NCBI GenBank assembly: GCA_934426285.1
Contig: CAKRYE010000002.1
Coordinates: forward strand, 4,628-68,627
Source: an uncultured Blautia sp.
Lineage (GTDB): Bacteria; Bacillota; Clostridia; Lachnospirales; Lachnospiraceae
DNA: 64,000 nucleotides
Direction: 5' to 3'
A model generated the notes under the pieces. That model saw only the letters and a program-made list of their open reading frames with translations. It was not told the DNA's origin and made no database searches. This document shows positions 13,830 through 41,918 of the stretch, in pieces. A program made the position numbers and the translations under genes. The first letter of the stretch is position 1; the number at the start of each line of letters is the position of its first letter.

Positions 13830-13848
13830 ACTCTTCTTTCCCCTTATC

Positions 13849-15252
13849 TTAATATGCATTCTTATTTACAAATCCCTTAAAAAAGGTAAGAAAAATAATC
13901 TTTATATCAAAGCCTATACTCCAGTTCTCAATATAATAAAGATCACATTCTATCCTCTTTCTGATGGATGTATCTCCACGATAGCCTTTTACCTGCGCCC
14001 ATCCGGTAAGCCCCGGACGAACCTGATGTTTCACCATATACCTAGGGATTTCTTCTCTGAATTTCTCTACAAAAAACGGTCTCTCAGGTCTGGGACCTAC
14101 CAGACTCATATCACCTTTTAAAATATTGAAAAGCTGCGGAAGCTCATCAATACTGGTATGCCGCATAAACTTACCGATCCCGGTCACACGTGGATCATTC
14201 TTTACCGTCCACGCCTTCTTCTCCTCCGACTCCGGCTGTACTTCCATAGAGCGGAATTTATACATCCGGAAATTCTGATTGTGAAGTCCCACCCTCTCCT
14301 GCTTGTAAATCAGGGGACCCGGGGAGGTCAGCTTGATCAGCAAACACATCAGAAGCATGATCGGAGACGTCACAATAATCCCTGCAATTGAACCCACAAT
14401 ATCCATAGCGCGTTTCACCATCGCATTAAATGTATTGTTCAACGGCACATAACGGATATTGATAACCGGAAGTCCCAATATATCCTCTGTATAGGGCTTT
14501 GTAGGAATAATCTTATTATAATCCGGGATAAATTTTGTGTGTACTCCCGACTTTTCACACAATGCTACAATCTCCTCAAGTCGATAGTACTCACTCAGTC
14601 CCAGTGTAATGGCGATCTCATCCAGGCGGTTTTCAGGCAAAATCACATTCAGATTTGCGATTCTTCCCAGCACCTTAATCCCCCGGTAGGCAGTCCCTGC
14701 CGGAACATTATCATCCAGGATTCCCCGGATCACATAACCCCACTGCGGGTTAGCCAGTACACGATCAATATATTCCTCAGCAGCCCTGCTGTATCCCACA
14801 CAGATCATCTGTGTCTGGTTCATGCCCTTTTCACGCATATCTCTGAGAAGAGCAAATATCAGCATACGGGTTCCCCACTGAAGGACAATATTGATCAGAT
14901 AAAACATAATATATGTGGATCGGGAAAAATCTCCCTCATCAATCATATAAAATGTAAACATAAGAATCAGAAGTCCCAGGGAATTGGCCTTCACAATATT
15001 TGCCAGAACCAGCCGGCGTCCCTGCATCCGCATAGGCGTATACAAGGTAAATGCCTGATACAAAAGCAGATAAACCGGTATGATAAAGACAAGCATCAGC
15101 ATATACTGCTGAAAGCTCCTTGTCCTTACCGCAGTTGCCGACATAGGACCCACAAAACGTATCAGCCATGCCAGAAAATATGAAAGCGCAAGCACAACAG
15201 CATCTATAAGCATATGGAGACGACTAAAATTCTTTTCATTGTCCTTTAACAA
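13849..15252 (-). CDS. undecaprenyl-phosphate glycosyl-1-phosphate transferase (WbaP/CpsE type)
   Basis: 467 residues. It has four or five N-terminal transmembrane helices (to about 130), a CoA-binding-like NAD-fold middle domain (about 140-260), and another helix (DIVGSIAGIIVTSPIMLLMC). The C-terminal catalytic bacterial sugar transferase domain has KQERVG, RMYKFRSM, TSIDELPQLFNIL and GDMSLVGPRPERP. It loads the first sugar phosphate onto undecaprenyl phosphate, the committing step of polymer synthesis. The start is TTG preceded by GAGGTG; this keeps the full first helix. It has its own promoter (15337-15366) and a structured leader. Confidence 0.92.
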   Translation of the reverse strand: MLKDNEKNFSRLHMLIDAVVLALSYFLAWLIRFVGPMSATAVRTRSFQQYMLMLVFIIPVYLLLYQAFTLYTPMRMQGRRLVLANIVKANSLGLLILMFTFYMIDEGDFSRSTYIMFYLINIVLQWGTRMLIFALLRDMREKGMNQTQMICVGYSRAAEEYIDRVLANPQWGYVIRGILDDNVPAGTAYRGIKVLGRIANLNVILPENRLDEIAITLGLSEYYRLEEIVALCEKSGVHTKFIPDYNKIIPTKPYTEDILGLPVINIRYVPLNNTFNAMVKRAMDIVGSIAGIIVTSPIMLLMCLLIKLTSPGPLIYKQERVGLHNQNFRMYKFRSMEVQPESEEKKAWTVKNDPRVTGIGKFMRHTSIDELPQLFNILKGDMSLVGPRPERPFFVEKFREEIPRYMVKHQVRPGLTGWAQVKGYRGDTSIRKRIECDLYYIENWSIGFDIKIIFLTFFKGFVNKNAY

Positions 15253-15408: not shown

Positions 15409-16365
15409 TTATCCTTTCAGGCGTCGGAACATATTAATCCACAATTCTATCTGTATTTTCAGGTAATGAGGCAGATTTTCCACTCGGAAAGCTACTTTTC
15501 TGTCACGCCTGCTGATCTGAAATCCATTCTTAATACCTGCCAGATATTCCCTTCCAAATCCTTTCAGACCAAAAAACAGGATTTTAATCCCAAAGCCAAT
15601 AACCAGGAAAGGCAGATTTAACACAATCTGCAGCAATGGCATATTTTTGTAGATTAAATACACATTATTTCTGGATGAATAGCGGATCTTAAACTGATTG
15701 TATCTGGATCCACTGGTACCGCTGCCCACATGATATACCTTAGCCAATGGAAAATACCAATTCTCATAGCCATTGATCCTGGCCCTGTATCCCACATCCA
15801 TATCCTCCAGGTAGGCAAAATGCTCCTCATCAAAATATCCTATTTTTTCAAAAATATCCTTTCGATAAATAGCCGCTCCCGCGCAGGAAGCAAAAATCTT
15901 CTCTTCTTTTTCATAGGTATGAATATTTTTACCCTTTCCTCTGGCAAAGGCCCAACCCAGGGCACAATAATAATTGCCTGCGTCATCCAGTCTGTCCCTG
16001 TCATGAAACTGTATCATTCGGGCTGCTCCGGAGAAAGCTTTCGGATGCCTCCTGATCCCCTGAAGCATCTGCTCAATAAAATCCCTTGTAACCTCTATAT
16101 CATTATTCAGAAGTAGTACATAGGATGCCCTGGAGGCTTTAATTCCCTCATTCACAGCCTTACAGAATCCAAAATTCTCAGGAAGCTCTATAAGACGCAC
16201 CCAGGGATACGAGGCTGCCACAAAAGCACAACTTCCGTCAACAGAACCGTTGTCTACCAGGATCACCTCAAAATTTTTTACAGTCTGACACTCCAGACCG
16301 GAAAGTACTCCATCCAGATAAGCCATCCCGTTATAATTGGGAATGATCACTGATATTTCCTGCAT
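15409..16365 (-). CDS. family 2 glycosyltransferase (WbbL-like)
   Basis: 318 residues from the ATG at 16365, which follows AGGAGGAAATC; upstream in-frame ATGs lie inside the preceding gene without such a site. ISVIIPNYNGMAYLD opens the GT-A fold, LLLNNDIEV carries the DxD-type site and YLEDMDVGYRA the acid/base motif, as in dTDP-rhamnosyl transferases of the WbbL group. The C-terminus is hydrophobic and basic (NLPFLVIGFGIKILFFGLKG), suggesting peripheral membrane binding. It overlaps the preceding double-domain transferase by 35 bases, so the two are translated together. Confidence 0.85.
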   Translation of the reverse strand: MQEISVIIPNYNGMAYLDGVLSGLECQTVKNFEVILVDNGSVDGSCAFVAASYPWVRLIELPENFGFCKAVNEGIKASRASYVLLLNNDIEVTRDFIEQMLQGIRRHPKAFSGAARMIQFHDRDRLDDAGNYYCALGWAFARGKGKNIHTYEKEEKIFASCAGAAIYRKDIFEKIGYFDEEHFAYLEDMDVGYRARINGYENWYFPLAKVYHVGSGTSGSRYNQFKIRYSSRNNVYLIYKNMPLLQIVLNLPFLVIGFGIKILFFGLKGFGREYLAGIKNGFQISRRDRKVAFRVENLPHYLKIQIELWINMFRRLKG

Positions 16366-18253
16366 GATTTCCTCCTGCTTCTTTCTTTTTCTCATCATCC
16401 TTCCAACTCATTCCCGGAAGTGGTTTCAGAGAATAATTCCATTTTGTAAGGGAAAGGTTTTTATTATAATAAGGATCTCCGTTTTTCAGGATATCCAGCC
16501 AGTGACAGCGCATATATTCAATTTCAGTCTGAAAACGGCGTACTTTTTCTTCACTGTCCTCTGCTCCCCTTGTTTTTGATTCCATATGATAAAGCTCTGC
16601 ATAGGGATCATATACAATGAGAAAGCCTTTCTTTCGCACCTTCAGACACAGATCCACATCATTAAATGCCACAGCCAGCTCCTCTGTAAAACCGCCTGCT
16701 TCCTCAAATACTTTCTTCTTCATCATCATGCAGGCGGCAGTCACTGCACTCATATCCTGCAAAAGAGATGCCTTGTGCAGATAACCGGTACGGTCTGCCG
16801 GCATATCCACAAACATATGTCCGGCAATTCCTCCCATCCCTACCACACAGCCTGCATGCTGAATGGTATGATCCGGATAGATCAGTTTTGCTCCCACTGC
16901 TCCTACCTCCGGTCGCTGGCATACTCCCAGCATCTCTTCCATCCATGAAGGCCGGATTGTTTTTATATCATTATTCAAAAACAGCAGATACTCGCCCCTT
17001 GCATGAGATGCCCCAAAATTATTGATGGCAGAATAATTAAACTCCTTTGTCCACCGCAGGAGCCGGATCCGGGAATCCCTGGAAAGTTCCTTGTAATATT
17101 GAAAAATCTCCTCTGTAGTGCTGTTATTTTCCACAATGATGATTTCAAAATTCTGATAATCTGTATTATTTTTCAGAGATTCCATACAGGTCTGCAAAGT
17201 TTCTTTTTCATCTTTATTTGGAATGATCACCGATACTAACGGCTGTCCCTGAACCGGATATTGGACACGGTAAAATCCCAGATCCGGGGTATGACTTACC
17301 TCTCCCCTGACACCGGTTCTTTTCAGGTGTTCTTCAATAGCACGCTTTCCGGCTTCAAAAGCATACATCTTACTTGCCGGATTGTCTGCAGTAGATGCCT
17401 TATGGGTCCTCCAGTGATACAAAATCTCGGGCACATGAACTACCTCCCTGGCAGCCTCTGTGCAGCGGAAAATAAAATCATAATCCTGCGCTCCGTCAAA
17501 TTCCCTGCGAAAACCTCCCGCCTGCTCCACCACACTTCTGCGAACCATAAAAAAATGGCAGATATAATTATTAGACCTTAAAAGATCCAGATTAAAATCA
17601 GGTTTCAGGTGAGGCTGAAAATGCTCATCCAGTTCTGTGGTAACCTTATCCTCATCTGTATAAACAGCATCTGCCTCCGGATGTGTCTGCAGCGTCTGCA
17701 CAATTTCATAAAGCGCATTGGGTGCCAGCAGATCATCATGATCCAGAAGCCCGAGAAATTGTCCCTTTGCCATGGCAAATGCCCTGTTTGTATTCTCTGC
17801 AATACCCAGATTTTCTTTCAGGTTACAAAAACGCACCCTCTCATCCCGGGCTGCATACTCTGCCAGAACTCTCTGCATCTCTTCATTATCAGGACTTGCA
17901 TTGGCAATACAAAGTTCCCATACTCCATATGTCTGTCCTGTTACAGAATCGATCATCTGTTTCAGGAATTCTGTAGGAGTCTGATAGGCAGGTACTATAA
18001 TACTGATCAGCGGCTCATATTTAAATCTGTGAGTTCTCTGTCTGTCCAGCGCTGCCTCATCCGGGGCATAGGCCTGATACCATGGGGCATAGGGTACTTC
18101 CTCCGGCTCAAATCTTTCATGAAGACGAATCCAGAATTCCTTTGGCCCATAATGCTTCAGATATCGAAAACCCTTTTGCACTGTATAGGGAGAAAGTTTC
18201 TTCAAAACCCTCAGCCACTGGATTTTTCCCCCTGTAGATTGTTGTTTATTCAT
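16331..18253 (-). CDS. bifunctional double-domain GT2 glycosyltransferase
   Basis: 640 residues with two tandem GT-A domains. The first (about 80-300) begins LISIIVPAYQTP with FLGLLDHDDLLAP; the second (about 340-600) begins LVSVIIPNKDEKET with LLFLNNDIKT and VAFNDVDLCL. The N-terminus (about 1-70) is a basic helical segment. Tandem GT2 proteins of this type extend polymers with two alternating or successive sugars. A paralogue is encoded at 21343-23793. It is the first gene of a two-gene unit with the WbbL-like transferase, facing away from the D,D-carboxypeptidase gene. Confidence 0.85.
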   Translation of the reverse strand: MNKQQSTGGKIQWLRVLKKLSPYTVQKGFRYLKHYGPKEFWIRLHERFEPEEVPYAPWYQAYAPDEAALDRQRTHRFKYEPLISIIVPAYQTPTEFLKQMIDSVTGQTYGVWELCIANASPDNEEMQRVLAEYAARDERVRFCNLKENLGIAENTNRAFAMAKGQFLGLLDHDDLLAPNALYEIVQTLQTHPEADAVYTDEDKVTTELDEHFQPHLKPDFNLDLLRSNNYICHFFMVRRSVVEQAGGFRREFDGAQDYDFIFRCTEAAREVVHVPEILYHWRTHKASTADNPASKMYAFEAGKRAIEEHLKRTGVRGEVSHTPDLGFYRVQYPVQGQPLVSVIIPNKDEKETLQTCMESLKNNTDYQNFEIIIVENNSTTEEIFQYYKELSRDSRIRLLRWTKEFNYSAINNFGASHARGEYLLFLNNDIKTIRPSWMEEMLGVCQRPEVGAVGAKLIYPDHTIQHAGCVVGMGGIAGHMFVDMPADRTGYLHKASLLQDMSAVTAACMMMKKKVFEEAGGFTEELAVAFNDVDLCLKVRKKGFLIVYDPYAELYHMESKTRGAEDSEEKVRRFQTEIEYMRCHWLDILKNGDPYYNKNLSLTKWNYSLKPLPGMSWKDDEKKKEAGGNHAGNISDHSQL

Positions 18254-21342: not shown

Positions 21343-23793
21343 TCAGATTCTTTTCAGTGAAAAATCCTGGCTGTCCAGTGTAAGGTTAGGATTATAATAA
21401 GGATCTCCTTTATCCAGAACCTTTCCCCAATGCTTTTCAAAGCTGGCAATCTCACGATTAAATCTGGCAACCTTTTCCGGTGTATCCTCCAGCCCTCTGG
21501 ATTTGGATTCATAATGATAAAGCTCTGCATACGGGTTATAAACGACCAGATATCCTGCTTCCCCTAAACGCAGACAAAAATCAATATCATTAAAGGCAAC
21601 CTGAAACTCCTCACTGAGTCCTCCTACCTTTTCAAATGCCTCTCTCTTCACCATCATACAAGCTGCAGTTACTGCACTGTAATCCTGTGCGCAGATAATT
21701 CTGTGACAGTATCCGGTAGCGTCCCTCTTCTGCTGTACAAAGCAATGTCCGGCAATCCCGCCGAATCCAATCACAACTCCTGCATGCTGTACCGTATCAT
21801 CTTCGTAATACAGACGGGCTCCTACTGCACCTACATCCGGCCTCATACAATATCCCAGCAGCTGTTCCAGGCAGTCCGGGCTGATAATCTCCGTATCATT
21901 GTTCAGGAGAAGCAGATATTCGCCTTTTGCATGTGATACACCAAAATTATTGATAGCGGAATAGTTAAAAATACCATCCCAGTACACTACATGTGCCTTC
22001 GGATTGGAGGCCTCCAGTTCCCTGTAATAGTCAAAAGTAGCCTGTTCCTCACTGTTGTTCTCCACGATCACATACTCAAAATTCCGGTAGGTTGCTTTCG
22101 CTTCTATAGAATCGATACATCTCTTCAGATCATCGATATGATCTTTGTTTGGAATAATAATGGAAATCAGCGGTTTCTCCTCCCAGAGAAACTTCGTACG
22201 ATACAGTCCCAGGTATTCTCCCTTCTGAATCTCAACCGGAATTCCCATTCTGTCATAATGGGCCTGAATAGCACGCTGTCCTGCATCAAATGCATACATC
22301 TTACTTTCCGGATTTTCTGCTGTGGAATCCTCATGGCATCTCCAGTGATAAAGGATCCTTGGAATATGACGGATATACTCTTTTCCTGCCGCTTCCACAC
22401 AACGGAGCACAAAATCATAATCCTGTGCACCATCAAATTCCTTTCTCAACATACCAACCTGATCGATCAGCTCTTTTTTTACCACAAAAAGATGGCAAAT
22501 ATAGTTTACTGTACACAGAAGATCAATATTGAAATCCGGTTTAAAATGAGGCTGGAAAAACTTATGACCATCCATGGACATCTTGTCCTCATCAGAATAC
22601 AGTACTTTGATCTCTTTTTCCTGGTTCAGTGCCTTCACACACTGAAACAAAGCATCCGGAGTCAGCTCATCATCATGATCCGCAAAGGCAATAAAATCTC
22701 CTGTTGCAGCCCTGATCGCCGCATTGGTATTTTCTGCGATCTGAAGAGCCTTTGCATTACGGACCACACGGATCCTGGCATCACTTTTTTCCATAGTAGT
22801 CAGAAACTCTGAAAGAGGAGAATCTGCCCCACTTCCGTCAGAAAGACAAAGTTCCCAATTTTCATAGGTCTGTGCCTGAATAGAATCTATTAACTGCTGA
22901 AGATATTTCTCCGGTGTTTTGTAAAGAGGGATCACCAGACTAATCTTCGGATTCCAGGAGAATTTTGTTTTCCGTTGTTCTGCAAGCTCAGCCTTATCCG
23001 GTAAATGCTTCACGATCCATTTGGAATAATCTACCGGACGGTTCTTACGGTTCATTACCTTTCCAAAGACCTTTCCGGTGAGAGCTGCAGCCCCGTGAAG
23101 CTTCATATAACGGCTTCCCTTTCGGAAATACACCGCTGCTTTTTCAGCAAGCCGTTTCTGTGCCTGCAAATGCACCAGACGAAGAGTCCGCACATTACCA
23201 GCCTCAAATACAATATAAAATTCCTTTACACTGTCATAATGAAATTCAAAGAAAAATCCACTCTTTTCATCGATTTCTGTTTCCTGATACTGATTCTGTA
23301 CATCCACACGCTTCAATCTGGTAATCTCACAGGGAAGCATCTTTCTGCTCCTGTCCTCCAGCCGGATCGTCAGCGGTCTGTCAAAAGCAGCCCATCCGCG
23401 GACACGGCAAAGCTTTTCTCCGGATTCCACTTCGATGCTTTCAATAAAATACTGGGGCTTTCCCTGTTTTTTCTGAAGCTGTGCAGCAGAAGCAGAAAAC
23501 CACTGGATGCGCTTTCCCCCTTTTACTGCATAGATACCAAGTTTCTTCTTTCCTTCCAGCTCTGCCGGCAGGCGGACTTCCATCTGCACCCGCTCACCAT
23601 TTACCAGATCCAGATCCTTAAAGCGCTCCAGAGCACTGACACGCTCCTGTGCACTGATAACTACCGGAAGCGGCTCACCATCGAGAACGGCTTCCGCCTT
23701 ATAGTCTTTGGGCCAGGTTCCCTGAAGATGGTAAACAGAGCTGTCCTTCAGATCAAACCTGTCTTTCTCTACTTCGTATAGCTCTCGCTGCAT
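21343..23793 (-). CDS. double-domain GT2 glycosyltransferase with N-terminal beta domain
   Basis: 816 residues. The N-terminal third contains a beta-rich module (about 118-215, with VRGWAAFDRPLTI and GFFFEFHYD) that resembles a module in the upstream giant protein. Then come two GT-A domains: about 285-520 (PKISLVIPLYKTPEK, FIAFADHDDELTP) and about 545-800 (LISIIIPNKDHIDD, LLLLNNDTEI, VAFNDIDFCL). It is a paralogue of the 16331 gene with an added N-terminus. It probably adds two residues of the repeat unit. Its ATG overlaps the end of the giant gene by 25 bases, behind GGAGG, showing tight translational coupling. Confidence 0.87.
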   Translation of the reverse strand: MQRELYEVEKDRFDLKDSSVYHLQGTWPKDYKAEAVLDGEPLPVVISAQERVSALERFKDLDLVNGERVQMEVRLPAELEGKKKLGIYAVKGGKRIQWFSASAAQLQKKQGKPQYFIESIEVESGEKLCRVRGWAAFDRPLTIRLEDRSRKMLPCEITRLKRVDVQNQYQETEIDEKSGFFFEFHYDSVKEFYIVFEAGNVRTLRLVHLQAQKRLAEKAAVYFRKGSRYMKLHGAAALTGKVFGKVMNRKNRPVDYSKWIVKHLPDKAELAEQRKTKFSWNPKISLVIPLYKTPEKYLQQLIDSIQAQTYENWELCLSDGSGADSPLSEFLTTMEKSDARIRVVRNAKALQIAENTNAAIRAATGDFIAFADHDDELTPDALFQCVKALNQEKEIKVLYSDEDKMSMDGHKFFQPHFKPDFNIDLLCTVNYICHLFVVKKELIDQVGMLRKEFDGAQDYDFVLRCVEAAGKEYIRHIPRILYHWRCHEDSTAENPESKMYAFDAGQRAIQAHYDRMGIPVEIQKGEYLGLYRTKFLWEEKPLISIIIPNKDHIDDLKRCIDSIEAKATYRNFEYVIVENNSEEQATFDYYRELEASNPKAHVVYWDGIFNYSAINNFGVSHAKGEYLLLLNNDTEIISPDCLEQLLGYCMRPDVGAVGARLYYEDDTVQHAGVVIGFGGIAGHCFVQQKRDATGYCHRIICAQDYSAVTAACMMVKREAFEKVGGLSEEFQVAFNDIDFCLRLGEAGYLVVYNPYAELYHYESKSRGLEDTPEKVARFNREIASFEKHWGKVLDKGDPYYNPNLTLDSQDFSLKRI

Positions 23794-26700
23794 AACAATT
23801 CCTCCATTGCATCCTTTCCGGTATTCCTGGTCAGATACTGCTCCATCACCTTCTGATGCGCAGCCTCGCCCATAGCTCTTCTGGCTTTCTCATCAGTGAT
23901 CAGAGACTCCAGAGCACTGATCCATTCTTCCTTTGTTCTACACATCCAGCCGTTTTTTCCATTCTCGATCACATATTCCATCTCCCGGTTACGGCTCATA
24001 ATACTTGGCACTTTTACAAGTGCAGCCTCTGTCCACTTATTTTCTGATTTACAACAGTGGAACAGACTATCTTCCAGAGGCATCAGATTAATATCCAGAC
24101 CAGCGATCACTGCCGGAAGCTGTCTCCAATCCATAAACGGAAGTTTTTCGATACGGTTCTGTACTCTCTCCATTCCGGATTCATCCAGAATACCAACTAA
24201 TTTCAGATAAACCTCCGGATGATGTTCCATCACCTCCAGAAGCGCAGATTCTACCTGGGCAAAATCCTGGTCATGAGTTCGGGAACCACTGAGATATCCG
24301 ATATAAATTTTCTCCTCATTTTTATCTGTCTGTTCAGATGCTTCATGGGAAAGGATTTCCATTTCCATACTCATACAGTTTCGGTTGATCACTACCGGTT
24401 TTCCGGAAAACACCTCCCGGATCACCCCTGCCAGCGTCTCTGTAGATGTTATATAACCATCACAGAATTCCATACATCCATGAATCCGCTCCGCAGTTGT
24501 GCGAAAATCGCTGTATTCCTTTCCCTTCAGGAAATGAAGGCCTGCAATCTTTTCATAATCAAAAACAAGGTCATCAATGTCATAATATACACGGATCCCC
24601 GCAGCTTTCGCCCGGTCTGCCAGCATTTCCACTTCCATCAGTTTGCTGCATCGATAGAGGACAATTGCCTCATACTCTTCTAAGCTTTCCTTTTCTGCCT
24701 GATCCATCTGTATAAATCGGGAAGCATATCCTCTGAGGATCAATTGCTCACGGAAATGTTCCACCCGGTATCTGGATGCAAAAGAAATTTCCTCACCTAC
24801 AAAAAGGATTTTGCGTTTTTCCACAGGAAGCTTATGACCGTCCAGCTTTTTCCACAGGGAAAGCATCTCTTCCACAATATTCTCCGGCTGCTCATTTTTC
24901 AGCACAAGCCCTCTGGAATACCGTTTTACACGTTCCACCGGTGCTCCCACCGGAAGAACTGCCAGTGGATATCCCATGGAAATGACCTCAGAAGTTGTAT
25001 AGGAAAAGGTTTCCGGCCACACTGACGGAATCAGGAACATATCAATATCCTGTTCCAGGGCAAGCCTTGGGATCTCCTCTCTGGTATATCTTCCTGTCTG
25101 TGAAAATACCGGACTGCCAATTTCTTCATCCGATGTACCGATCAGTCTCAGACGGACATCCAGTTTTTTTTCTTCAATATATCCTGCAAGTGCTTTCACA
25201 ACCTCCAGACCTTTTTTATAACAAAGAACACCAATCAAACCAATGTTAAAGGTTTCTGTGGTTTTTCTGACTTTTTTCACTGCCGGAAGGTAATGTGGTG
25301 CATGAGGAATTACATGTAAATTATATACATCCGGATAAGCTTTCTTGAACAGCTTCGCTGTATCATCGGAAAAGGCACGGATTTCATCACAATTCAGCAG
25401 AAATTCCCGGAATTTCCTACGCCAGAGAGTCCCACTTCCATATTCCGTACACGCATTGCTGCGATTGTCCGGAATACATTTATCACATATCTGGCAGGAT
25501 CCAACACCACAGTATTTTCCCTGTGCATCAATCAGATTCACTGCAGGACAAAGTGCAAAGAAATCATGAAGAAGCATTAAAATTTTTGCCCCCTGCTCCT
25601 TCTTGAGACAAAGGATCCTCTCCAGAGTTCCATAAAGATTCTGGTATGTCACAAGCTCATTGATCCAGATTTCCTCCACACGCATCACTTCACCAAGCGC
25701 CGTCTCCAGATCATTGGCAAAAAACTCCATCTCATACTGCTTATACTGATATGTGAAATAAAAACGATTGCTCACAATATTATAGCGAATCGTAATAAAC
25801 CGGTATCCCTGCTGCAGGGCCAGCCTTCTTTTTTCCACAAGATATGCTGTGGCACCACCGCCAAGATCATGGTCAAATGCCAAGATTGTCGGAACCTCCA
25901 GCTTCCTGTTGAGAAGCTTCATCTCCACATACAGCCTTACCGGACGAAGTGGGTCTCTTCTGCAATAATCAGCAGTATCCCTGTTATAATCCGGATGCTT
26001 GCGAAGCAATGCCTCACTGTGTTCCTCCAGAAGGCGCTGCTTTTCCTCTGACGGGAAGCTTCCCCCATGCTTATGATACACAAAGAGATTATCTACCTGT
26101 ACATTTTCATAGCCTGCTGCAATTGCCCGCTGACACCAGTCATTCTCTTCTCCGTAACCCTTTCCAAAATTCTCTTCATCCAGAAGTCCAACCTCTCTGA
26201 CTGCTTTGATATTCATACCCATGCAGAAGCCCACACCAGTAGGCATAACCGGATACTGGGGACGGATCATACGGAACTCATCATCGATCTCCCACAAAGG
26301 CATTTTCTCGAACAGCTTATTATCTCTGCAAAAATCCGGAAAACTGCAGATCGTTCCACAGGTAGTAAAGGGTGTGGTGGTAGCAATATTGTCTCTGGCA
26401 AAAATAGGAAGCATAAGCCGTTCCAGCCATTCTTCCGGAACCTCCACATCTGTATTCACAAGCGCAACATGATTTTCTGCCATCTTAAGCGCACGGTTCA
26501 CAGATGGTAAAAATCCCATATTGGTTTCATTATTCAGGAGTACTACATTATCATGCTCAGCCGCATATTTTTCAAGATATTTTCCGGTTTCCGGATCTGG
26601 GCTCTTGTCATTTACAATGATCAGCCTGTATGGCACCCTGGTTTTCGCAATCCCGGAGAAAAGGGCATCAAAATATTCCAGCCCATTATATACCGGTACG

Positions 26701-29387
26701 ATCACGTCTACCATCTGCTGATACACAGCCTGGGGATAATCCTTTCTCACACTGCGCACATGACGCTGTTTGAAGTGTCTGAGATTTCCCATACTCTTGG
26801 GATCCTCAATAGCGGAAACCAGAAACTCCTCCTGTCCAGGTGATGCCGGCACTTTGCCAAGAAGAAATCTCCCGGTGTCTCCAGGATTTCCATACTCCAG
26901 AAATACCGTAACCTCTCCTGGAGCCAGAACCGTTGCCTGGAAGGAAAAACCGGCACTCTCCGCATCCGGATTGCCAATTGCCTGTGCCACATCCATCCGA
27001 TAGATTGTAGTCAACGGACTCTCCTGCAGTTTCTCTGTCCCTGCATAAAATGCGATCCTTGTCTGTCCCATCTCCTGAAATGTAGGATCAAAAGCCCAGC
27101 CCACTGTGTTCAGCACGCAGTCTTCATAATGAAAGAAATCCACACTTCCCATGCAGGTTGGTGTTGCTTCCACATTCTGCGCTGCTGCCGTTGTATTGTT
27201 ATAATGAAGAACTTTCTTCAGCAGACGTTTTACCTGGGCTTTTTTGCCAGGATGACGAAGGGCCTCCTTCTCTGCCTCTTCGGCCGCCTTCCGTTCTTCC
27301 TTTTTGGCCTTCTCTAGAGCCTTGCGCTCCTCTTCTGCTTTCTGTCTGGCCAAAAGGTTTTCCACATCCCCAAGCTCCAGATATTCCAGTTTTCCCTGGA
27401 TCACAATCTTATCCACATTTTCCGGATGCATTACCTGTATCAGATAAAATCCATCTGTTGTAAAAAATGCGGTAGTATTGTTGTCCATAATCATATGAAC
27501 GCCCTGTGGCACAAGCCTTGCACTGCAGCCGCAGTCCAGACGTTCCACCTTTACTTTCAGGAAATGGCCATTTGCCGGATTCCATCGGATATTCTGTACC
27601 CCTTTTATTGGTGAAAGATCAAATTCCACACGGAAACGGTTACCTGTAAGTCTGCCCTCTACATGAAGTGTATGCTCTTCGCAGAAGCCTCCCCCAAGGT
27701 CATAGTAGACCTTACTGTGCATCTGACGCTTTTCCCTCTCACTGTTTACAATCTCAGTAAGGGAAACCGGCATGCGCTTCTGTTCAAAGGGCGTCAGGGA
27801 ATCACAACCCACATATCCATAGACAAAATGCAGCGTCCAGTTCATGAAAATCTCATAATCTGTATATCCGATCCCGAACTCTGCCATCATATCATCCTCA
27901 TGGATCAGCTGCGGAAGCACTGAAATATGTGTATACAGCTCATGGATCAGACGCCACATAATAAAATTCACAGGAACCGGGAAAGAAAACATCCACTCAT
28001 AATCAATGATCTGATTTTCCTTCTCCCCCATAAAAATATTGCTGCAGATCAGATCCACATTTGCCGGGCAGATACACTCATAATCCCCTCTTCCCTCATA
28101 GCTTCCGAATACCTGACGGAATTCCTCTGTCCGGTAATCCGTAACTTTCCGGGCTGCAAAAAGCTCCTGATAGAGCCCCTTCAGAAGCTCTTTGATCTCA
28201 TCCACTTTCCCTTTATCCGCAAGTTCTCCGATCTCCTGATGAAGAGTTTTCCCGGTAAGAAGCGGATAAACAATTTTTCCCTGTTCTGCTTTACAGGGAA
28301 GATTCTGATATCTGTCAGAGCCCATGCTTTTTGTTCCAAGCTCCTCCAGTTTTTCTACAAACTCTTCTGCCTCCGGAACCATGGCCTCTTTTTCTGCCCA
28401 GGTCTCACCATTCCGGCGGATAATCCTTGTCAGCAGACGAAATCTCTTTTTCCGTCCCTGGTTCAGCTTCACATAAAGGATCTCTTCCTTTTCCTTAGCT
28501 TCTGATTTTCCGGCCTCAACCAGAAAAGAATTCACAAAACGATCTAGGATTTTTTCTTTTTCAAAAGCTTTTACACCCTCACTTTCCGAAAAGAGAGCCG
28601 CTGTTTTGTCCGTATAAACCGGGTAATTTCTTCCATAGGAATTGGTATAAAGACTCTCATCCGTAAAAATTTCTGTAGGAAATTTATAATCTGGATATGG
28701 ATAATAAAAATGTAGAAAAGGAAAACCACTGTTTTTCAGCAGTTCTCCCAATTCTTCTTTAGAAAAAGTACGCACAGAATGATTTCCCGGATAACCATCA
28801 ATTCCAAAAAAATGAATATCTGTATGATCTTCCGGCGCGCCTGCAAAATATTTTAGTCCCAACCTGTTTTCAATGGCAATCAGTAGTTTCCCTTCCGGTT
28901 TCAGATACCCGCCCATTTCCTGCAGAAAAGTCTCATAGGGAGTCTCCCCTTCCGTAAAGCTCATGGCATACTCCAGTACTCCATTTACCACAACATAATC
29001 AAAGCTTTCAGGAAAAGTCATATCATTGAGATTTCCCACCATAATCGTCAGATTCTCTTTTTCGCTGTTTCTGGCAAAATTAATCTCTGCTCTTCGTCTG
29101 GACAACTCCACAGAGGTTACCTTTCCGGCCTTCTGACAGAGCATTCCTGTAATTGCACCACAACCGGCGCCAATCTCCAGAACCGAATCTGTTTTTTTCA
29201 ACGGATACCAGTTCAGGATATTCTCTCTCAGATCTGAAAAATGATAGACCATAGGAAAACTTACTTCATCCTCCGGAAGATCCTGAAAAGATTTTCCTTC
29301 CCTGCCCATTTCCAGAAGCGTATTCTCAATATCACCATCTGAATAATGATCCTTCGCTGTATAGTAATCTAAATTCAGCTTTGCCAT
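23769..29387 (-). CDS. giant multidomain protein: methyltransferase, kinase-like, beta domain, coiled coil, accessory domain, GT2, GT4, GT4
   Basis: 1872 residues from the ATG at 29387 (GGAGG six bases upstream). Domains: a class I SAM methyltransferase (about 45-235, motif I VLEIGAGCG at 69-77); a phosphotransferase/kinase-like domain (about 280-560) with NVDLICSN at 443-450 and IDYEW at 461-465, matching the Asp-x4-Asn and metal Asp of APH-type kinases; a beta-rich segment (570-670); a charged coiled coil (680-712); a GWAFDP beta module (750-850); a GT2 domain (892-1150, VNTDVEV as the metal site); and two GT4-like domains (about 1180-1500 and 1510-1870). The first half follows the order of WbdD, the methyltransferase/kinase that caps and sizes ABC-exported O-antigens. 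It lies 13 bases after the wzt-like gene. Capping and extension by one chain is inference. Confidence 0.85.
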   Translation of the reverse strand: MAKLNLDYYTAKDHYSDGDIENTLLEMGREGKSFQDLPEDEVSFPMVYHFSDLRENILNWYPLKKTDSVLEIGAGCGAITGMLCQKAGKVTSVELSRRRAEINFARNSEKENLTIMVGNLNDMTFPESFDYVVVNGVLEYAMSFTEGETPYETFLQEMGGYLKPEGKLLIAIENRLGLKYFAGAPEDHTDIHFFGIDGYPGNHSVRTFSKEELGELLKNSGFPFLHFYYPYPDYKFPTEIFTDESLYTNSYGRNYPVYTDKTAALFSESEGVKAFEKEKILDRFVNSFLVEAGKSEAKEKEEILYVKLNQGRKKRFRLLTRIIRRNGETWAEKEAMVPEAEEFVEKLEELGTKSMGSDRYQNLPCKAEQGKIVYPLLTGKTLHQEIGELADKGKVDEIKELLKGLYQELFAARKVTDYRTEEFRQVFGSYEGRGDYECICPANVDLICSNIFMGEKENQIIDYEWMFSFPVPVNFIMWRLIHELYTHISVLPQLIHEDDMMAEFGIGYTDYEIFMNWTLHFVYGYVGCDSLTPFEQKRMPVSLTEIVNSEREKRQMHSKVYYDLGGGFCEEHTLHVEGRLTGNRFRVEFDLSPIKGVQNIRWNPANGHFLKVKVERLDCGCSARLVPQGVHMIMDNNTTAFFTTDGFYLIQVMHPENVDKIVIQGKLEYLELGDVENLLARQKAEEERKALEKAKKEERKAAEEAEKEALRHPGKKAQVKRLLKKVLHYNNTTAAAQNVEATPTCMGSVDFFHYEDCVLNTVGWAFDPTFQEMGQTRIAFYAGTEKLQESPLTTIYRMDVAQAIGNPDAESAGFSFQATVLAPGEVTVFLEYGNPGDTGRFLLGKVPASPGQEEFLVSAIEDPKSMGNLRHFKQRHVRSVRKDYPQAVYQQMVDVIVPVYNGLEYFDALFSGIAKTRVPYRLIIVNDKSPDPETGKYLEKYAAEHDNVVLLNNETNMGFLPSVNRALKMAENHVALVNTDVEVPEEWLERLMLPIFARDNIATTTPFTTCGTICSFPDFCRDNKLFEKMPLWEIDDEFRMIRPQYPVMPTGVGFCMGMNIKAVREVGLLDEENFGKGYGEENDWCQRAIAAGYENVQVDNLFVYHKHGGSFPSEEKQRLLEEHSEALLRKHPDYNRDTADYCRRDPLRPVRLYVEMKLLNRKLEVPTILAFDHDLGGGATAYLVEKRRLALQQGYRFITIRYNIVSNRFYFTYQYKQYEMEFFANDLETALGEVMRVEEIWINELVTYQNLYGTLERILCLKKEQGAKILMLLHDFFALCPAVNLIDAQGKYCGVGSCQICDKCIPDNRSNACTEYGSGTLWRRKFREFLLNCDEIRAFSDDTAKLFKKAYPDVYNLHVIPHAPHYLPAVKKVRKTTETFNIGLIGVLCYKKGLEVVKALAGYIEEKKLDVRLRLIGTSDEEIGSPVFSQTGRYTREEIPRLALEQDIDMFLIPSVWPETFSYTTSEVISMGYPLAVLPVGAPVERVKRYSRGLVLKNEQPENIVEEMLSLWKKLDGHKLPVEKRKILFVGEEISFASRYRVEHFREQLILRGYASRFIQMDQAEKESLEEYEAIVLYRCSKLMEVEMLADRAKAAGIRVYYDIDDLVFDYEKIAGLHFLKGKEYSDFRTTAERIHGCMEFCDGYITSTETLAGVIREVFSGKPVVINRNCMSMEMEILSHEASEQTDKNEEKIYIGYLSGSRTHDQDFAQVESALLEVMEHHPEVYLKLVGILDESGMERVQNRIEKLPFMDWRQLPAVIAGLDINLMPLEDSLFHCCKSENKWTEAALVKVPSIMSRNREMEYVIENGKNGWMCRTKEEWISALESLITDEKARRAMGEAAHQKVMEQYLTRNTGKDAMEELLCSESYTK

Positions 29388-29400
29388 AGTAATCCTCCAT

Positions 29401-30714
29401 TTATTCCACACTTACCCTGGAAAACATATCAAAATATCCCACTGCTTTCTTATCTGTGATCACTGTCAGGTTACACACATCATATAATCTGTGGAATACC
29501 GTAAAATCACCGTCTTTATAACCGGTACATCCCAGACACAGCATATATTCGCCTGCTTCCAGAGGCATTACCTGAGTAAATGTAATGTGCCTCACATCTC
29601 CTGCTTTCTGCGGCTTCACAGGCGTGTGCTCATACATGGTATTAGTTCCCGTGATCTCCGTACCTTTCAGATCCTTCAGGGTAAAGGCAAAAATCGGATC
29701 ATTGATATCTGCCTGGAAGCTCACCTTCATTTCAACAGAAAAAGTCTTTCCCTTCTCAACCACATTGGTGATCATTCCGGAATCGTCACGGATTGCAAAA
29801 TCCTGGATTTCTCCAAGCTTACTTCCATATTCCAGAAGCTGAGGATTCAAGTTCAGGCTGTCCTTCATACAAACTTCTGCCGCACTTTCGGAATCAGAAA
29901 CACTTTCCGCTTCCACTGTAGAATCTGCTTTTTCCCCTGCATTCTGATTTTCCTGGTTATCTCCCGGCTCATCGTACTGATTCACCAGTACCCGCCTGTA
30001 CAGATTTACCATCTCCTTGGCGTCACCCTCAGCCAGCTTTCTGCCTTTATTCAAAAGCACAACGCGGTCACAGTATTTTCCGATACTGCTCAGATCATGG
30101 CTGACGAAGAGAATTGTTTTTCCCAGTTTCTTGAACTCTTCGAATTTACGGTAACATTTTGCCTGGAAGAAAACATCGCCCACAGAAAGAGCTTCATCTA
30201 CGATCAGAATCTCCGGATCAATATTAATGGCAACAGCAAAAGCCAGTCGTACAAACATACCGCTTGAATATGTTTTCACCGGCTGATATACAAAATCACC
30301 GATATCGGCAAAGTCCAGAATAGACTGCAGCTTGGCATCAATTTCCTCCCTGGAAAAACCAATCATGCTTCCATTCAGATACACATTCTCAATCCCGGAA
30401 TACTCCATATTAAAGCCGGCTCCCAGCTCCAGAAGGGCTGATATCCTGCCATTTACCGTCACATTTCCGCCAGTAGGAGAAAGCACCCCTGTAATAATCT
30501 TAAGAATGGTGGACTTACCGGAACCATTGGTTCCGATGATCCCAACTGTTTCCCCTTTATTTACCTGAAAAGAAACATGATCCAGTGCAAAATGTTCTTT
30601 ATATTTTTTCTTTTTTGACAATCCCAGGGATTCCTTGAGCCGATCCATGGGATTATCATAAAGCTTATACATCTTACTCACATCATTTACTGAAATTGCA
30701 ATATCCTCTGCCAT
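29401..30714 (-). CDS. polysaccharide ABC exporter ATPase with C-terminal glycan-binding domain (Wzt/TagH-like)
   Basis: 437 residues. The nucleotide-binding domain (about 1-240) has Walker A GTNGSGKST, signature YSSGMFVRLAFA, Walker B ILIVDEALSVGD and switch FVSHD. After an acidic linker (about 245-285), the C-terminal beta-sandwich (about 290-437) resembles the Wzt C-terminal domain that recognises the modified end of a finished glycan. It partners with the permease encoded 55 bases upstream. The presence of this domain next to a methyltransferase/kinase-like protein suggests export gated by chain termination. The start follows AGAGAGG. Confidence 0.92.
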   Translation of the reverse strand: MAEDIAISVNDVSKMYKLYDNPMDRLKESLGLSKKKKYKEHFALDHVSFQVNKGETVGIIGTNGSGKSTILKIITGVLSPTGGNVTVNGRISALLELGAGFNMEYSGIENVYLNGSMIGFSREEIDAKLQSILDFADIGDFVYQPVKTYSSGMFVRLAFAVAINIDPEILIVDEALSVGDVFFQAKCYRKFEEFKKLGKTILFVSHDLSSIGKYCDRVVLLNKGRKLAEGDAKEMVNLYRRVLVNQYDEPGDNQENQNAGEKADSTVEAESVSDSESAAEVCMKDSLNLNPQLLEYGSKLGEIQDFAIRDDSGMITNVVEKGKTFSVEMKVSFQADINDPIFAFTLKDLKGTEITGTNTMYEHTPVKPQKAGDVRHITFTQVMPLEAGEYMLCLGCTGYKDGDFTVFHRLYDVCNLTVITDKKAVGYFDMFSRVSVE

Positions 30715-30769: not shown

Positions 30770-31576
30770 TCAGAGAACATCTGCAAAATGGGGCTTCAGG
30801 CGTTTGAATATCACAGACCCCAGTCCAAAAAGCATTATGGTAACCACCCAGAAATAAACAGTCCAGGAAAGATGGTTCCAGATTCCCACATGACCTAACA
30901 TAGAATCACGATAACCGGTTACAACATAATACATAGGATTCAGCTTAAACAGTCTGATCACCCAGGGATGAGCATTCAGAATATTCACATCCCACATAAT
31001 AGGGGTCATCCACACTCCTACCTGAAGAAAAATATTAATAATCTGAGTCAGATCACGGAAAAAAATCACAATTGCACTTGTAGCATACACCATCCCCAGT
31101 ACCAGAAAGAATGTGCAGATGGAATAATAAATAATCTGCAGAGTATATAAGCTTGGCCTATAACCATAGCAGGTACACAGAATCAGTGCAAAGATCACAA
31201 AAAATGCATGGACAAACAATGCAGAAATAATCTTTACAATAGGAAGAATACTGATCTTAAACACAACCTTCTTGACCAGATAATTATATTCCAGCAGGGC
31301 ATTGGTTCCACCGTTCAGCGCATCCTGAAAGAAAAACCAGGGTACAATACCGGAAACCAGATAAAGTACAAAGGGATAATTCGACACAGTTCCGGCCTTT
31401 AAGCCTACTGAAAAAACAAACCAGTACACAAGGATCGTAACAACAGGCTGGATAAATGCCCATACAATCCCCAGGTAAGATCCTGCATATTTTGTTTTAA
31501 AATCATTTTTCGCCAGACTGAGGATCAGTTTTCTATTGTGATACAGCTCCATCGGCAAAGCTAAAATTTTATTCAT
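30770..31576 (-). CDS. polysaccharide ABC exporter permease (Wzm/TagG-like)
   Basis: 268 residues with about six transmembrane helices, the ABC-2 type. The N-terminal amphipathic stretch and the SYLGIVWAFIQPVVTILVYW block are characteristic of the TagG/RfbA permease group, as is the VWMTPIMWDVN loop. It forms the membrane channel for a lipid-linked polymer, powered by the ATPase encoded downstream. The start follows AAGGA, and the gene begins 11 bases after rfbC. Confidence 0.92.
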   Translation of the reverse strand: MNKILALPMELYHNRKLILSLAKNDFKTKYAGSYLGIVWAFIQPVVTILVYWFVFSVGLKAGTVSNYPFVLYLVSGIVPWFFFQDALNGGTNALLEYNYLVKKVVFKISILPIVKIISALFVHAFFVIFALILCTCYGYRPSLYTLQIIYYSICTFFLVLGMVYATSAIVIFFRDLTQIINIFLQVGVWMTPIMWDVNILNAHPWVIRLFKLNPMYYVVTGYRDSMLGHVGIWNHLSWTVYFWVVTIMLFGLGSVIFKRLKPHFADVL

Positions 31577-31587
31577 TCTGTTTTTCC

Positions 31588-32145
31588 TTATCGATTATTG
31601 TATTCCTGAAAGCTTCCCCATTTGGTATCCTTATCCGAAAAGCTTAACTCCATTCCTTCCGGGATCGGCCACTGCACTCCAATATCCGGGTCATTCCAGA
31701 TCAGTCCGCCTTCATCATTTGGATGATAAAAATCAGAACATTTATAAACAAACTCTGCATGTTCAGAAAGCACTAGGAATCCATGTGCAAATCCCTTGGG
31801 AATAAAAAACTGTTTTTTGTTTTCTGCAGACAGTACAACACCAAACCATTTTCCATAGGTTTCAGAACCTTCACGAAGGTCTACCGCCACATCAAAAACT
31901 TCTCCGCTTACAACACGTACAAGCTTATCCTGAGGATAATTAATCTGGAAATGCAGTCCGCGAAGTACCCCTTTATGTGAGCTGGACTGATTATCCTGTA
32001 CAAATTCAACATCAATGCCTGCTTCTCTGAAATCATTGTAATTGTAGGTTTCCATGAAATAGCCTCTGGCATCTCCGAAAACTGTAGGCTCTACTACCTT
32101 CAAGCCCTTAATTCCGCCACATTCTGTCACTTTAATTTTTCCCAT
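31588..32145 (-). CDS. rfbC: dTDP-4-dehydrorhamnose 3,5-epimerase
   Basis: 185 residues, the normal RmlC length, a cupin fold. It contains FVQDNQSSSHKGVLRGLHFQ with the catalytic His, DVAVDLREGS, and FIPKGFAHGFLVLSE. It converts dTDP-4-keto-6-deoxyglucose to the L-lyxo form, the third step toward dTDP-L-rhamnose. rfbA, rfbB and rfbD are not in this window, so they must lie elsewhere. The start follows AAGAGGAAAAG. Confidence 0.95.
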   Translation of the reverse strand: MGKIKVTECGGIKGLKVVEPTVFGDARGYFMETYNYNDFREAGIDVEFVQDNQSSSHKGVLRGLHFQINYPQDKLVRVVSGEVFDVAVDLREGSETYGKWFGVVLSAENKKQFFIPKGFAHGFLVLSEHAEFVYKCSDFYHPNDEGGLIWNDPDIGVQWPIPEGMELSFSDKDTKWGSFQEYNNR

Positions 32146-40207: not shown

Positions 40208-40225
40208 TTTCATCCTTCTTTTCAT

Positions 40226-41677: not shown

Positions 41678-41780
41678 ACTTTTTCTCCTGTTTATTCATA
41701 TCCTGTTTTTGTTCTAAAGTTTATAATTACAATTGTATTTCTCTGTTGTCTTATGTGTTTGTTACATTTTTGTTAAAAAT

Positions 41781-41809
41781 ATTATACACGTTCCCCTCTT
41801 ATCTTGCAA
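41781..41809 (-). promoter_or_regulatory. promoter of the lysozyme-amidase operon
   Basis: Minus strand -35 TTGCAA (41809-41804), 17-base spacer, -10 TATAAT (41786-41781). The leader is about 100 bases and AT-rich, with no recognised riboswitch. Confidence 0.75.
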
Positions 41810-41855
41810 GACAACAGTTACAGCCAAGCAGAAGACTTACTTACTCCAACTAAAA

Positions 41856-41906
41856 GAACAAAAAGCGCATCGGGATTCATCGACCCGAAACGCTTTTCTT
41901 TTGTTC
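41856..41906 (-). terminator. terminator of the L,D-transpeptidase gene
   Basis: GAACAAAAAGCG pairs with CGCTTTTCTTTTGTTC (small bulge) and an inner TCGGG/CCCGA closes the loop. It lies directly after the stop at 41919. Confidence 0.8.
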
Positions 41907-41918
41907 ATTATGTGTTTA

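What the first reader, a model, noticed from the sequence alone, without database searches (positions are those of the whole stretch)
23769..30714. WbdD-like capping module fused to three glycosyltransferase domains, next to a glycan-reading Wzt
Seen: an 1872-residue protein with methyltransferase, APH/kinase-like motifs (NVDLICSN at 443-450, IDYEW at 461-465), a coiled coil (680-712), then GT2-GT4-GT4, 13 bases after an ABC ATPase with a C-terminal beta-sandwich. Known: in E. coli O8/O9a, WbdD (methyltransferase, kinase, coiled-coil ruler) caps chains extended by WbdA, and the Wzt C-terminal domain recognises the capped end. Inference: here terminator, ruler and polymerase are one polypeptide in a Gram-positive, giving length control and export licensing in one machine. 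I know of no characterised example of this exact fusion.
Basis: partly seen in the sequence, partly recalled or inferred. Interest (0 to 1): 0.82.

Follow-up and report, generated by a model that had tools for sequence, protein, structure and literature searches.

The report
Gram-positive sugar-chain capping and export machine
A gut-type Gram-positive bacterium appears to build a cell-wall sugar chain, stamp its end with a methyl-phosphate cap and let an export pump check that cap, using two neighbouring genes; the principle is known from Gram-negative bacteria, while this kinase-type Gram-positive form and a one-residue signature in the pump that tracks the kind of cap look new.

Summary
The anatomy is real. 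The 1872-aa protein is methyltransferase (MT), kinase, beta-sandwich, charged helix, beta domain, GT2, GT4, GT4, 13 bases after a Wzt with a Wzt_C domain. AlphaFold plus PDB comparison makes residues 280-545 an APH-fold kinase; K333, D445, N450, D462 are invariant in 53 sequences.

Two corrections. (1) Such a fusion is already characterised: Klebsiella O7 ORF6 has the same N-terminal order and matching residues; Gram-positive WsaE is a methyl-only version. The right relative is O7 ORF6, not WbdD. (2) The "coiled coil" is a 38-residue charged helix without heptads; a ruler is unproven.

New here: the writer profile matches 210 of 397 family genomes, with MT, kinase and polymerase fused or split. 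In 60 such genomes, 50 of 50 Wzt within 3 kb of a writer are long, against 23 of 52 elsewhere. The Wzt residue aligned with the methyl-cap tryptophan of A. aeolicus is Arg in 86 of 86 MT+kinase loci and 0 of 17 others (mostly one clade); PDB 2r5o, a methylphosphate reader by recall, also has Arg.

Best reading: methylphosphate-capped wall polysaccharide with cap-licensed export. All chemistry is inferred. New variant of a known kind.

The parts
23769..29387 (-). 1872-aa terminator-polymerase fusion (ATG start)
   Evidence: full-length homologs
28638..29387 (-). SAM methyltransferase domain, residues 1-250
27753..28550 (-). APH-fold kinase, residues 280-545; K333, D445, N450, D462 invariant
27378..27725 (-). 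beta-sandwich, residues 555-670, same place as the Ig-like CBM of O7 ORF6
   Evidence: model secondary structure; position compared
27210..27239 (-). short basic amphipathic helix, residues 717-726 (within VKRLLKKVL and what precedes it), possible membrane contact
   Evidence: a 14-aa stretch of net charge +5 or more near this place in 49 of 53 homologs; membrane contact is inference
26808..27152 (-). second beta domain, residues 746-860 ('B2'), weak copy in the next GT2-GT2 protein
   Evidence: E 6.7e-7 in the 21343-23793 protein
26190..26705 (-). GT2 domain
   Evidence: Pfam PF00535 E 1e-14
24849..25271 (-). first GT4 domain
   Evidence: Pfam PF00534 E 6e-15
23892..24239 (-). second GT4 domain
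   Evidence: Pfam PF13692 E 2.1e-16
29401..30714 (-). Wzt: ABC ATPase with C-terminal jelly roll of the cap-binding type
29425..29832 (-). Wzt_C domain, residues 295-430
   Evidence: PF14524 E 7.7e-40; matches A. aeolicus CBD and 2r5o
29488..29490 (-). Wzt Arg409, aligned with the methyl-cap Trp362 of A. aeolicus Wzt
30770..31576 (-). Wzm, ABC-2 membrane subunit
   Evidence: PF01061 E 4.5e-16
31588..32145 (-). rmlC, dTDP-4-dehydrorhamnose 3,5-epimerase
   Evidence: TIGR01221 above cut-off
21343..23793 (-). GT2-GT2 protein
16331..18253 (-). GT2-GT2 protein of the same locus
13849..15252 (-). polyprenyl-phosphate sugar-1-phosphate transferase, likely chain starter
   Evidence: TIGR03023 above cut-off
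12444..13859 (-). LytR-CpsA-Psr ligase, likely attaches the chain to peptidoglycan
   Evidence: PF03816 E 5.5e-29, TIGR00350 above cut-off

Best explanation
The two genes form a cap-and-read machine for a lipid-linked, probably rhamnose-containing wall polysaccharide. The GT2-GT4-GT4 half extends the chain at its non-reducing end (inferred from domains). The APH-type kinase phosphorylates the end sugar and the methyltransferase methylates that phosphate, which stops growth (inferred from fold, invariant catalytic residues and the characterised relative O7 ORF6). The jelly roll of Wzt reads the cap, with Arg409 in the place of the methyl-stacking Trp of a methyl-cap reader, and Wzm/Wzt exports only capped chains (inferred). 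An LCP enzyme of the locus then ligates the chain to peptidoglycan (inferred). Shown here by computation: the anatomy, the predicted kinase fold, invariance of the active site, linkage of this writer to long Wzt, and the Arg signature. Not shown: any chemistry. Whether the helix between writer and polymerase measures chain length is left open, and for this protein I think a coiled-coil ruler unlikely.
Against: No biochemistry and no polymer structure. The sixth residue named for O7 ORF6, Y28, does not fit the offset of 18. K333 is His in L180. The Arg counts are mostly one Wzt clade (2 changes on the NBD tree), so they are not 86 events, and 14 of the 17 non-Arg rows have a gap there, so the column is less certain in them. 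L065 (Rhizobiales) has HRRLD in its Wzt but no detected writer, and was outside the count. L016 (Paenibacillus faecis) has another kind of N-terminal MT on the same polymerase type but a short Wzt, so an MT does not always go with a reading domain; leaving it out, the polymerase contrast is 11 of 12 against 0 of 3, p 0.009. My MT profiles missed that MT, so '0 of 20' covers only MTs of the profiled types. Partial Mantel also gave kinase with Wzm r 0.21, p 0.001. Three Paenibacillus loci with an MT-kinase writer have no Wzt_C hit but another C-terminal extension. One fused writer (L002 = L083) sits next to a short Wzt; its long Wzt lies about 16 kb away. Six of 60 fetched writer regions show no Wzt. 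The helix is not a canonical coiled coil.
Confidence: 0.73

Rival explanations
1. Methyl-only cap: the kinase no longer counts, and the MT puts a methyl directly on the end sugar, as in WsaE (and, by recall, E. coli O8).
For: MT genes without a kinase hit lie near long Wzt in this bacterial family (8 loci), and Gram-positive WsaE works this way.
Against: Kinase catalytic residues are invariant in 53 of 53; kinase-containing loci carry an Arg at the Wzt methyl-pocket Trp column, the 8 MT-only loci do not.
Confidence: 0.1
2. Decoration, not termination: kinase and MT add substituents along the chain or on side chains, and Wzt-C reads another feature.
Against: Link of writer and Wzt-C; kinship with O7 ORF6, a shown terminator.
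Confidence: 0.12
3. Terminator without ruler (concerns length control only, compatible with the best explanation): chain length follows from competition between polymerase and terminator, and the helix is only a linker.
For: Helix of the window is short and lacks heptads; the span matching residues 672-763 is 71-139 aa in 53 relatives while MT, kinase and beta-sandwich vary by about 1-2 aa SD; [quoted passage not shown]
Against: A variable-length helix between conserved writer and polymerase is also what a tunable ruler would look like; 3 of 13 relatives tested beat about 98% of shuffles for heptads (L073, L022, L099).
Confidence: 0.6
4. The Arg at the Trp362 column reflects clade history of Wzt and says nothing about cap chemistry.
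For: MT+kinase loci fall almost entirely in one NBD clade; L065 has Arg without a detected writer.
Against: The column is the residue that lids the methyl pocket in A. aeolicus, and 2r5o, from a system with a methylphosphate cap (by recall), also has Arg there.
Confidence: 0.3

Closest known systems
Klebsiella pneumoniae O7 ORF6 (PMC11231755)
   Same: One polypeptide: MT, an unannotated APH-like kinase domain (catalytic Asp D441), Ig-like CBM, helix/coil, then glycosyltransferases; CgnL and AmiN as closest solved folds; ABC transporter pathway; five of six named MT residues at a constant offset.
   Different: Gram-negative LPS O antigen; GT2-GT2 instead of beta domain-GT2-GT4-GT4; reported coiled coil, here a charged helix without heptads; the sequence of ORF6 itself was not available for direct alignment.
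E. coli O9a WbdD (PMC3482155)
   Same: MT plus kinase plus helical C-terminus; ABC transporter pathway with a carbohydrate-binding module that reads the cap; D351 and N356 of WbdD have the same spacing as D445 and N450.
   Different: Separate from the polymerase WbdA; eukaryote-like kinase; trimeric, C-terminal part 460-708 with predicted coiled coils; not among the PDB sequence matches shown for the profile.
Geobacillus stearothermophilus WsaE (PMC2943079)
   Same: Gram-positive, MT fused to two glycosyltransferase domains, ends capped, Wzm/Wzt in the cluster.
   Different: Methyl cap only, no kinase described; S-layer protein glycan, not an LCP-linked wall polymer; no coil described in the passages read.
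Klebsiella O12 WbbB
   Same: Polymerase, coil and terminator in one polypeptide (as described in PMC11231755).
   Different: Terminator is a glycosyltransferase (Kdo, by recall), not MT-kinase.
Aquifex aeolicus Wzm-Wzt (PMC9445017)
   Same: Wzt C-terminal jelly roll, E 1.5e-6 to this Wzt-C.
   Different: Reads a 3-O-methyl sugar with Trp362; the window has Arg409 there.

Membership tests
O7 ORF6-type terminator | N-terminal SAM MT with the named SAM-site residues | tested here: met
O7 ORF6-type terminator | APH-like kinase with catalytic Asp | tested here: met
   D445 invariant in 53 of 53
O7 ORF6-type terminator | Ig-like CBM after the kinase | tested here: inconclusive
   an all-beta segment 555-670 with high pLDDT is there, but its fold was not searched alone
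O7 ORF6-type terminator | coiled-coil region before the GT modules | tested here: not met
   helix present, heptads no better than shuffles
O7 ORF6-type terminator | direct sequence homology to ORF6 itself | not tested
   the ORF6 sequence was not obtained; only residue numbers from the paper and Gram-negative relatives of like build
WbdD | eukaryote-like kinase of the WbdD type | tested here: inconclusive
   the 50 entries shown are APH and related kinases, WbdD not among them; absence from a list is not proof
WbdD | extended coiled-coil C-terminus (residues 460-708 of WbdD) | tested here: not met
   38-residue charged helix
WbdD | polypeptide separate from the polymerase | tested here: not met
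   fused to GT2-GT4-GT4; split relatives exist
WbdD | phosphorylates and methylates the chain end | not testable with these tools
   needs enzyme assays or NMR
Cap-reading Wzt | C-terminal Wzt_C jelly roll | tested here: met
   PF14524 E 7.7e-40; A. aeolicus CBD E 1.5e-6 and 2r5o E 2.4e-5
Cap-reading Wzt | binds the cap and is needed for export | not testable with these tools
   needs binding and export assays
WsaE | MT plus GTs without kinase | tested here: not met
   kinase fold present with invariant catalytic residues

The most novel reading that the evidence does not exclude
A large share of gut Lachnospiraceae (family name inferred from the named relatives) make wall polysaccharides whose free ends carry methylphosphate (MT+kinase writer) or methyl (MT-only writer), and their Wzt pumps read the cap with an Arg or a non-Arg pocket respectively, so the cap chemistry, chain stop and export licence of a whole class of Gram-positive wall polymers can be read from sequence. 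Writer and polymerase have been fused and split several times, and in the window's subgroup a monomeric charged helix takes the place of the trimeric coiled-coil ruler.
Probability: 0.48. Interest if true: 0.78.

Novelty: new variant of a known kind. Interest (0 to 1): 0.6.

Why it matters
Chain termination coupled to export has been worked out in Gram-negative O antigens and, for a methyl cap, proposed for a Gram-positive S-layer glycan. A kinase-type version spread through gut-type Bacillota would mean that common commensals control wall-polymer length and export by an end cap that ordinary sugar analysis easily misses. The wall glucorhamnan of R. gnavus, a Lachnospiraceae member, is an immune-active TLR4 ligand (PMC12413058, passages), so end groups of such polymers may matter to host biology; whether R. 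gnavus has this writer was not tested. The Arg/Trp contrast in Wzt gives a one-residue, directly testable prediction.

Tried and rejected
WbdD by sequence: single-sequence and profile searches of PDB did not list WbdD (55 matches at E<=1; 60 of 68 shown at E<=10); in the structure list WbdD is absent from the 50 entries shown, which does not exclude it. Whole-model structure comparison was filled by the MT domain, so kinase plus beta-sandwich was folded and searched alone. Names: no Pfam family covers the kinase region and no NCBIfam equivalog shown passes its cut-off for the giant protein. A phosphocholine-type kinase role (LicA match; choline-binding repeats nearby) was considered and set aside because APH, AmiN and LicA matches differ little and the neighbourhood is that of a cap writer. 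A class-level search of 385 genomes around a Rhizobiales genome gave 1 match at E<=1e-20. Papers on the WbdD ruler, the O9a Wzt-C structure and the O9a reader were not held, so the nature of PDB 2r5o as E. coli O9a Wzt-C and its methylphosphate ligand rest on recall; the listing calls it only a putative ATP-binding component. Literature searches for a Gram-positive MT-kinase terminator showed no such report in the rows listed; only open-licence PMC papers are searchable and most lists were capped.

Biases. The 60 writer regions were picked by me from the places listed, best first but not every one. Short-Wzt controls L160-L179 came from genomes without a writer match, so alone is circular; some searches were run to answer that. 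at first left out five writer genomes in whose fetched region no Wzt was seen; they were searched and added (48 of 48 against 17 of 44 became 50 of 50 against 23 of 52). Wzt length (>=380 aa) stands for the domain there, and the writer list was cut off by the tool, so some 'far' Wzt may be near an unlisted writer. In one search six of the ten MT positives had been used to build the MT profile, the 20 long-Wzt places come from 15 genomes, and L142's MT gene lies 4.5 kb away. Rows with WztC but without both MT and kinase among the loci before L140 (L065 and L057 among them) were left out. The polymerase-matched tally (11 of 12, 0 of 4) was made by hand, duplicates of one contig counted once, loci without visible Wzt left out. 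Trees are quick trees without bootstrap, with several long branches.
Full report
WHAT IS THERE. The gene runs 29387 to 23769 on the minus strand, 1872 aa from an ATG preceded by GGAGG, 13 bases after the stop of Wzt. Pfam finds a class I methyltransferase, a GT2 and two GT4 domains, and leaves the stretch between MT and GT2 blank; Wzt carries Wzt_C at E 7.7e-40. Upstream are Wzm and rmlC; downstream are a GT2-GT2 protein, a DUF2142 membrane protein, another GT2-GT2 protein, a polyprenyl-phosphate sugar transferase and an LCP ligase. Two D-Ala-D-Ala carboxypeptidase-type genes, an amidase, a lysozyme-type and an L,D-transpeptidase-type gene lie around it. This is the setting of a lipid-linked wall polysaccharide.

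THE KNOWN RELATIVE. In PMC11231755 I saw abstract and outline, section 10, the first parts of sections 11 and 13, and search passages. It describes Klebsiella O7 ORF6: N-terminal MT, an unannotated kinase domain whose D441A mutant was inactive, an Ig-like CBM, a coiled coil, then two GT2 modules, in one chain; the product was a methylphosphate on the terminal rhamnose. Its closest solved folds were CgnL and AmiN. Five of the six MT residues that the paper names fall on Y48, G73, G75, E94 and Y140 here with one offset; the sixth, Y28, does not. A Desulfobacteraceae protein of 1374 aa (L049: MT, kinase motif, GT2, GT2) and a 651-aa protein of an alphaproteobacterial genome (L180) keep those five residues and the D-x4-N ... 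D-x-E-W signature; L180 lacks the lysine. I therefore place the module with O7 ORF6. WbdD has a eukaryote-like kinase and a coiled-coil C-terminus (passages of PMC3482155). The S-layer enzyme WsaE (passages of PMC2943079) is a Gram-positive MT-GT-GT fusion whose methyl cap is thought to end the chain. So neither the fusion nor the Gram-positive setting is new on its own. I know of no report of the kinase-type fusion in a Gram-positive, and the rows listed by eight searches of the open library showed none.

THE HELIX. The 38-residue helix is 58% charged, has no heptad signal over shuffles and is rich in Glu-Lys/Arg pairs. In 53 relatives the span matching residues 672-763 is 71-139 aa (SD 13), while MT, kinase and sandwich segments vary by 1.0-1.6 aa SD; the second beta segment also varies (127-164 aa, SD 9.7). 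Of 52 writers that the script took as split, the tail after the sandwich is 0-176 aa apart from one that is a 1358-aa fusion. Of 13 relatives tested for heptads, three beat about 98% of shuffles (L073 1.3%, L022 0.7%, L099 2.0% as good) and ten do not. A variable spacer is compatible with a ruler, but for the window a trimeric coiled coil is not indicated. A 14-aa stretch of net charge +5 or more follows in 49 of 53, perhaps a membrane contact.

SPREAD AND MODULARITY. The writer profile matches 210 of 397 genomes of the family of the Oliverpabstia genome at E<=1e-20. Some matches cover only the MT part, and in loci read the kinase then often follows as a separate gene (for example L091, L092, L096, L107). 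Among 84 MT-kinase sequences on a tree, fused and split need 7 changes, 5 forced by starred branches. The exact long fusion is one lineage plus one further case (L012). So the window shows one of several packings of the same parts.

WRITER AND READER. In 54 of 60 fetched writer regions a Wzt is visible, and in 53 it has Wzt_C. The exception (L083, the same contig as L002) has a 438-aa Wzt, 90% identical to the window's in the ATPase part, about 16 kb away. Because my short-Wzt controls came from writer-negative genomes, I looked inside the 60 writer-positive genomes: of 102 Wzt-like places, those within 3 kb of a listed writer were long in 50 of 50, the rest in 23 of 52 (p 2e-11, kinship not corrected); within 6 kb 56 of 59 against 17 of 43; within 10 kb 56 of 60 against 17 of 42. 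In 40 loci of genomes without a writer match, my MT profiles found an MT gene within 6 kb of 10 of 20 long Wzt (2 MT+kinase, 8 without a kinase hit) and 0 of 20 short ones (p 0.0004). Six of ten genes beside such long Wzt had an MT domain by Pfam. With like polymerases, loci holding the MT-kinase writer had long Wzt in 11 of 12 and those without in 0 of 4, so the transporter type seems to follow the terminator rather than the polymerase. Against a simple rule: one of those four, L016, carries another kind of MT on its polymerase and still has a short Wzt, and my MT profiles missed that MT; without L016 it is 0 of 3, p 0.009.

THE ARG SIGNATURE. The A. aeolicus paper (passages) shows Trp362 lidding the pocket of the 3-O-methyl cap, and W362L essentially abolishing binding. 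In an alignment of 103 Wzt-C domains, window included, with the A. aeolicus stretch, that column is Arg in 86 of 86 MT+kinase loci (window Arg409, motif HRLYD), gap in 7 and Tyr in 1 of 8 MT-only loci, gap in 7 and Trp in 2 of 9 loci without MT. PDB 2r5o, which I recall to be the E. coli O9a reader of a methylphosphate, has DRRYD there, and the Desulfobacteraceae Wzt has ERRYD. An arginine in place of the methyl-stacking tryptophan is what a phosphate cap would call for. Against this: on the ATPase tree the MT+kinase rows are nearly one clade (2 changes), the gaps make the column less certain, and L065 has HRRLD without a detected writer. Partial Mantel on 72 loci links kinase to Wzt-C beyond the ATPase and Wzm (r 0.36, p 0.001) but not to the ATPase (r -0.09); kinase to Wzm also stays at 0.21, p 0.001.

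VERDICT. Most likely this is a methylphosphate-type terminator fused to its polymerase, with a matching cap-reading exporter, serving a Gram-positive wall polysaccharide. Every chemical step is inferred. The kind of machine is known; the kinase-type fusion in Gram-positives, its spread, its repeated fusion and splitting, and the Arg signature are the additions. On checking I lowered the two main odds by 0.01-0.02, because of L016 and the missed MT.

Noticed in passing
L060 8294-9952, L069 8319-9974, L073 8259-9947: Paenibacillus loci with a separate MT-kinase writer have a Wzt whose C-terminal extension (about 310 aa) gave no Wzt_C hit but, in L060, the one scanned, an NHL repeat match: possibly another kind of cap reader.
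   Followed up: partly
L145 10880-12268, L146 10245-11768, L147 10773-12140, L148 7600-9015, L143 5652-9155: MT-only genes (456-508 aa, MT plus CBM-like part plus tail, or in L143 fused to GT2-GT2) next to long Wzt: candidates for a methyl cap in the same bacterial family.
   Followed up: partly
L016 8477-13498: Paenibacillus faecis 1674-aa protein: another kind of MT, CBM-like part, long helical-looking stretch, B2, GT2, GT4, GT4, beside a short Wzt.
   Followed up: partly
L181 1483-4575: A genome deposited as a Sulfurovum MAG carries a close MT and a kinase-GT2 gene back to back, separated by one in-frame stop; transfer or MAG contamination not settled.
   Followed up: no
L110, L113, L114, L115: MT-kinase genes of 570-625 aa without a CBM hit and without a visible Wzt in the fetched region: a branch with another role or partner.
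   Followed up: no
window 38885-44459: Amidase, GH25 lysozyme-type and L,D-transpeptidase genes with choline-binding-type repeats lie just upstream of the polysaccharide locus.
   Followed up: no
window 26733-27173 and 23194-23460: The second beta domain of the giant protein recurs weakly (E 6.7e-7) in the next GT2-GT2 protein (21343-23793); its role is unknown.
   Followed up: partly
P0038, P0039, P0053: Clusters of this long fusion are listed with 2731, 8154 and 4427 member sequences, so close relatives seem very common in public data.
   Followed up: no
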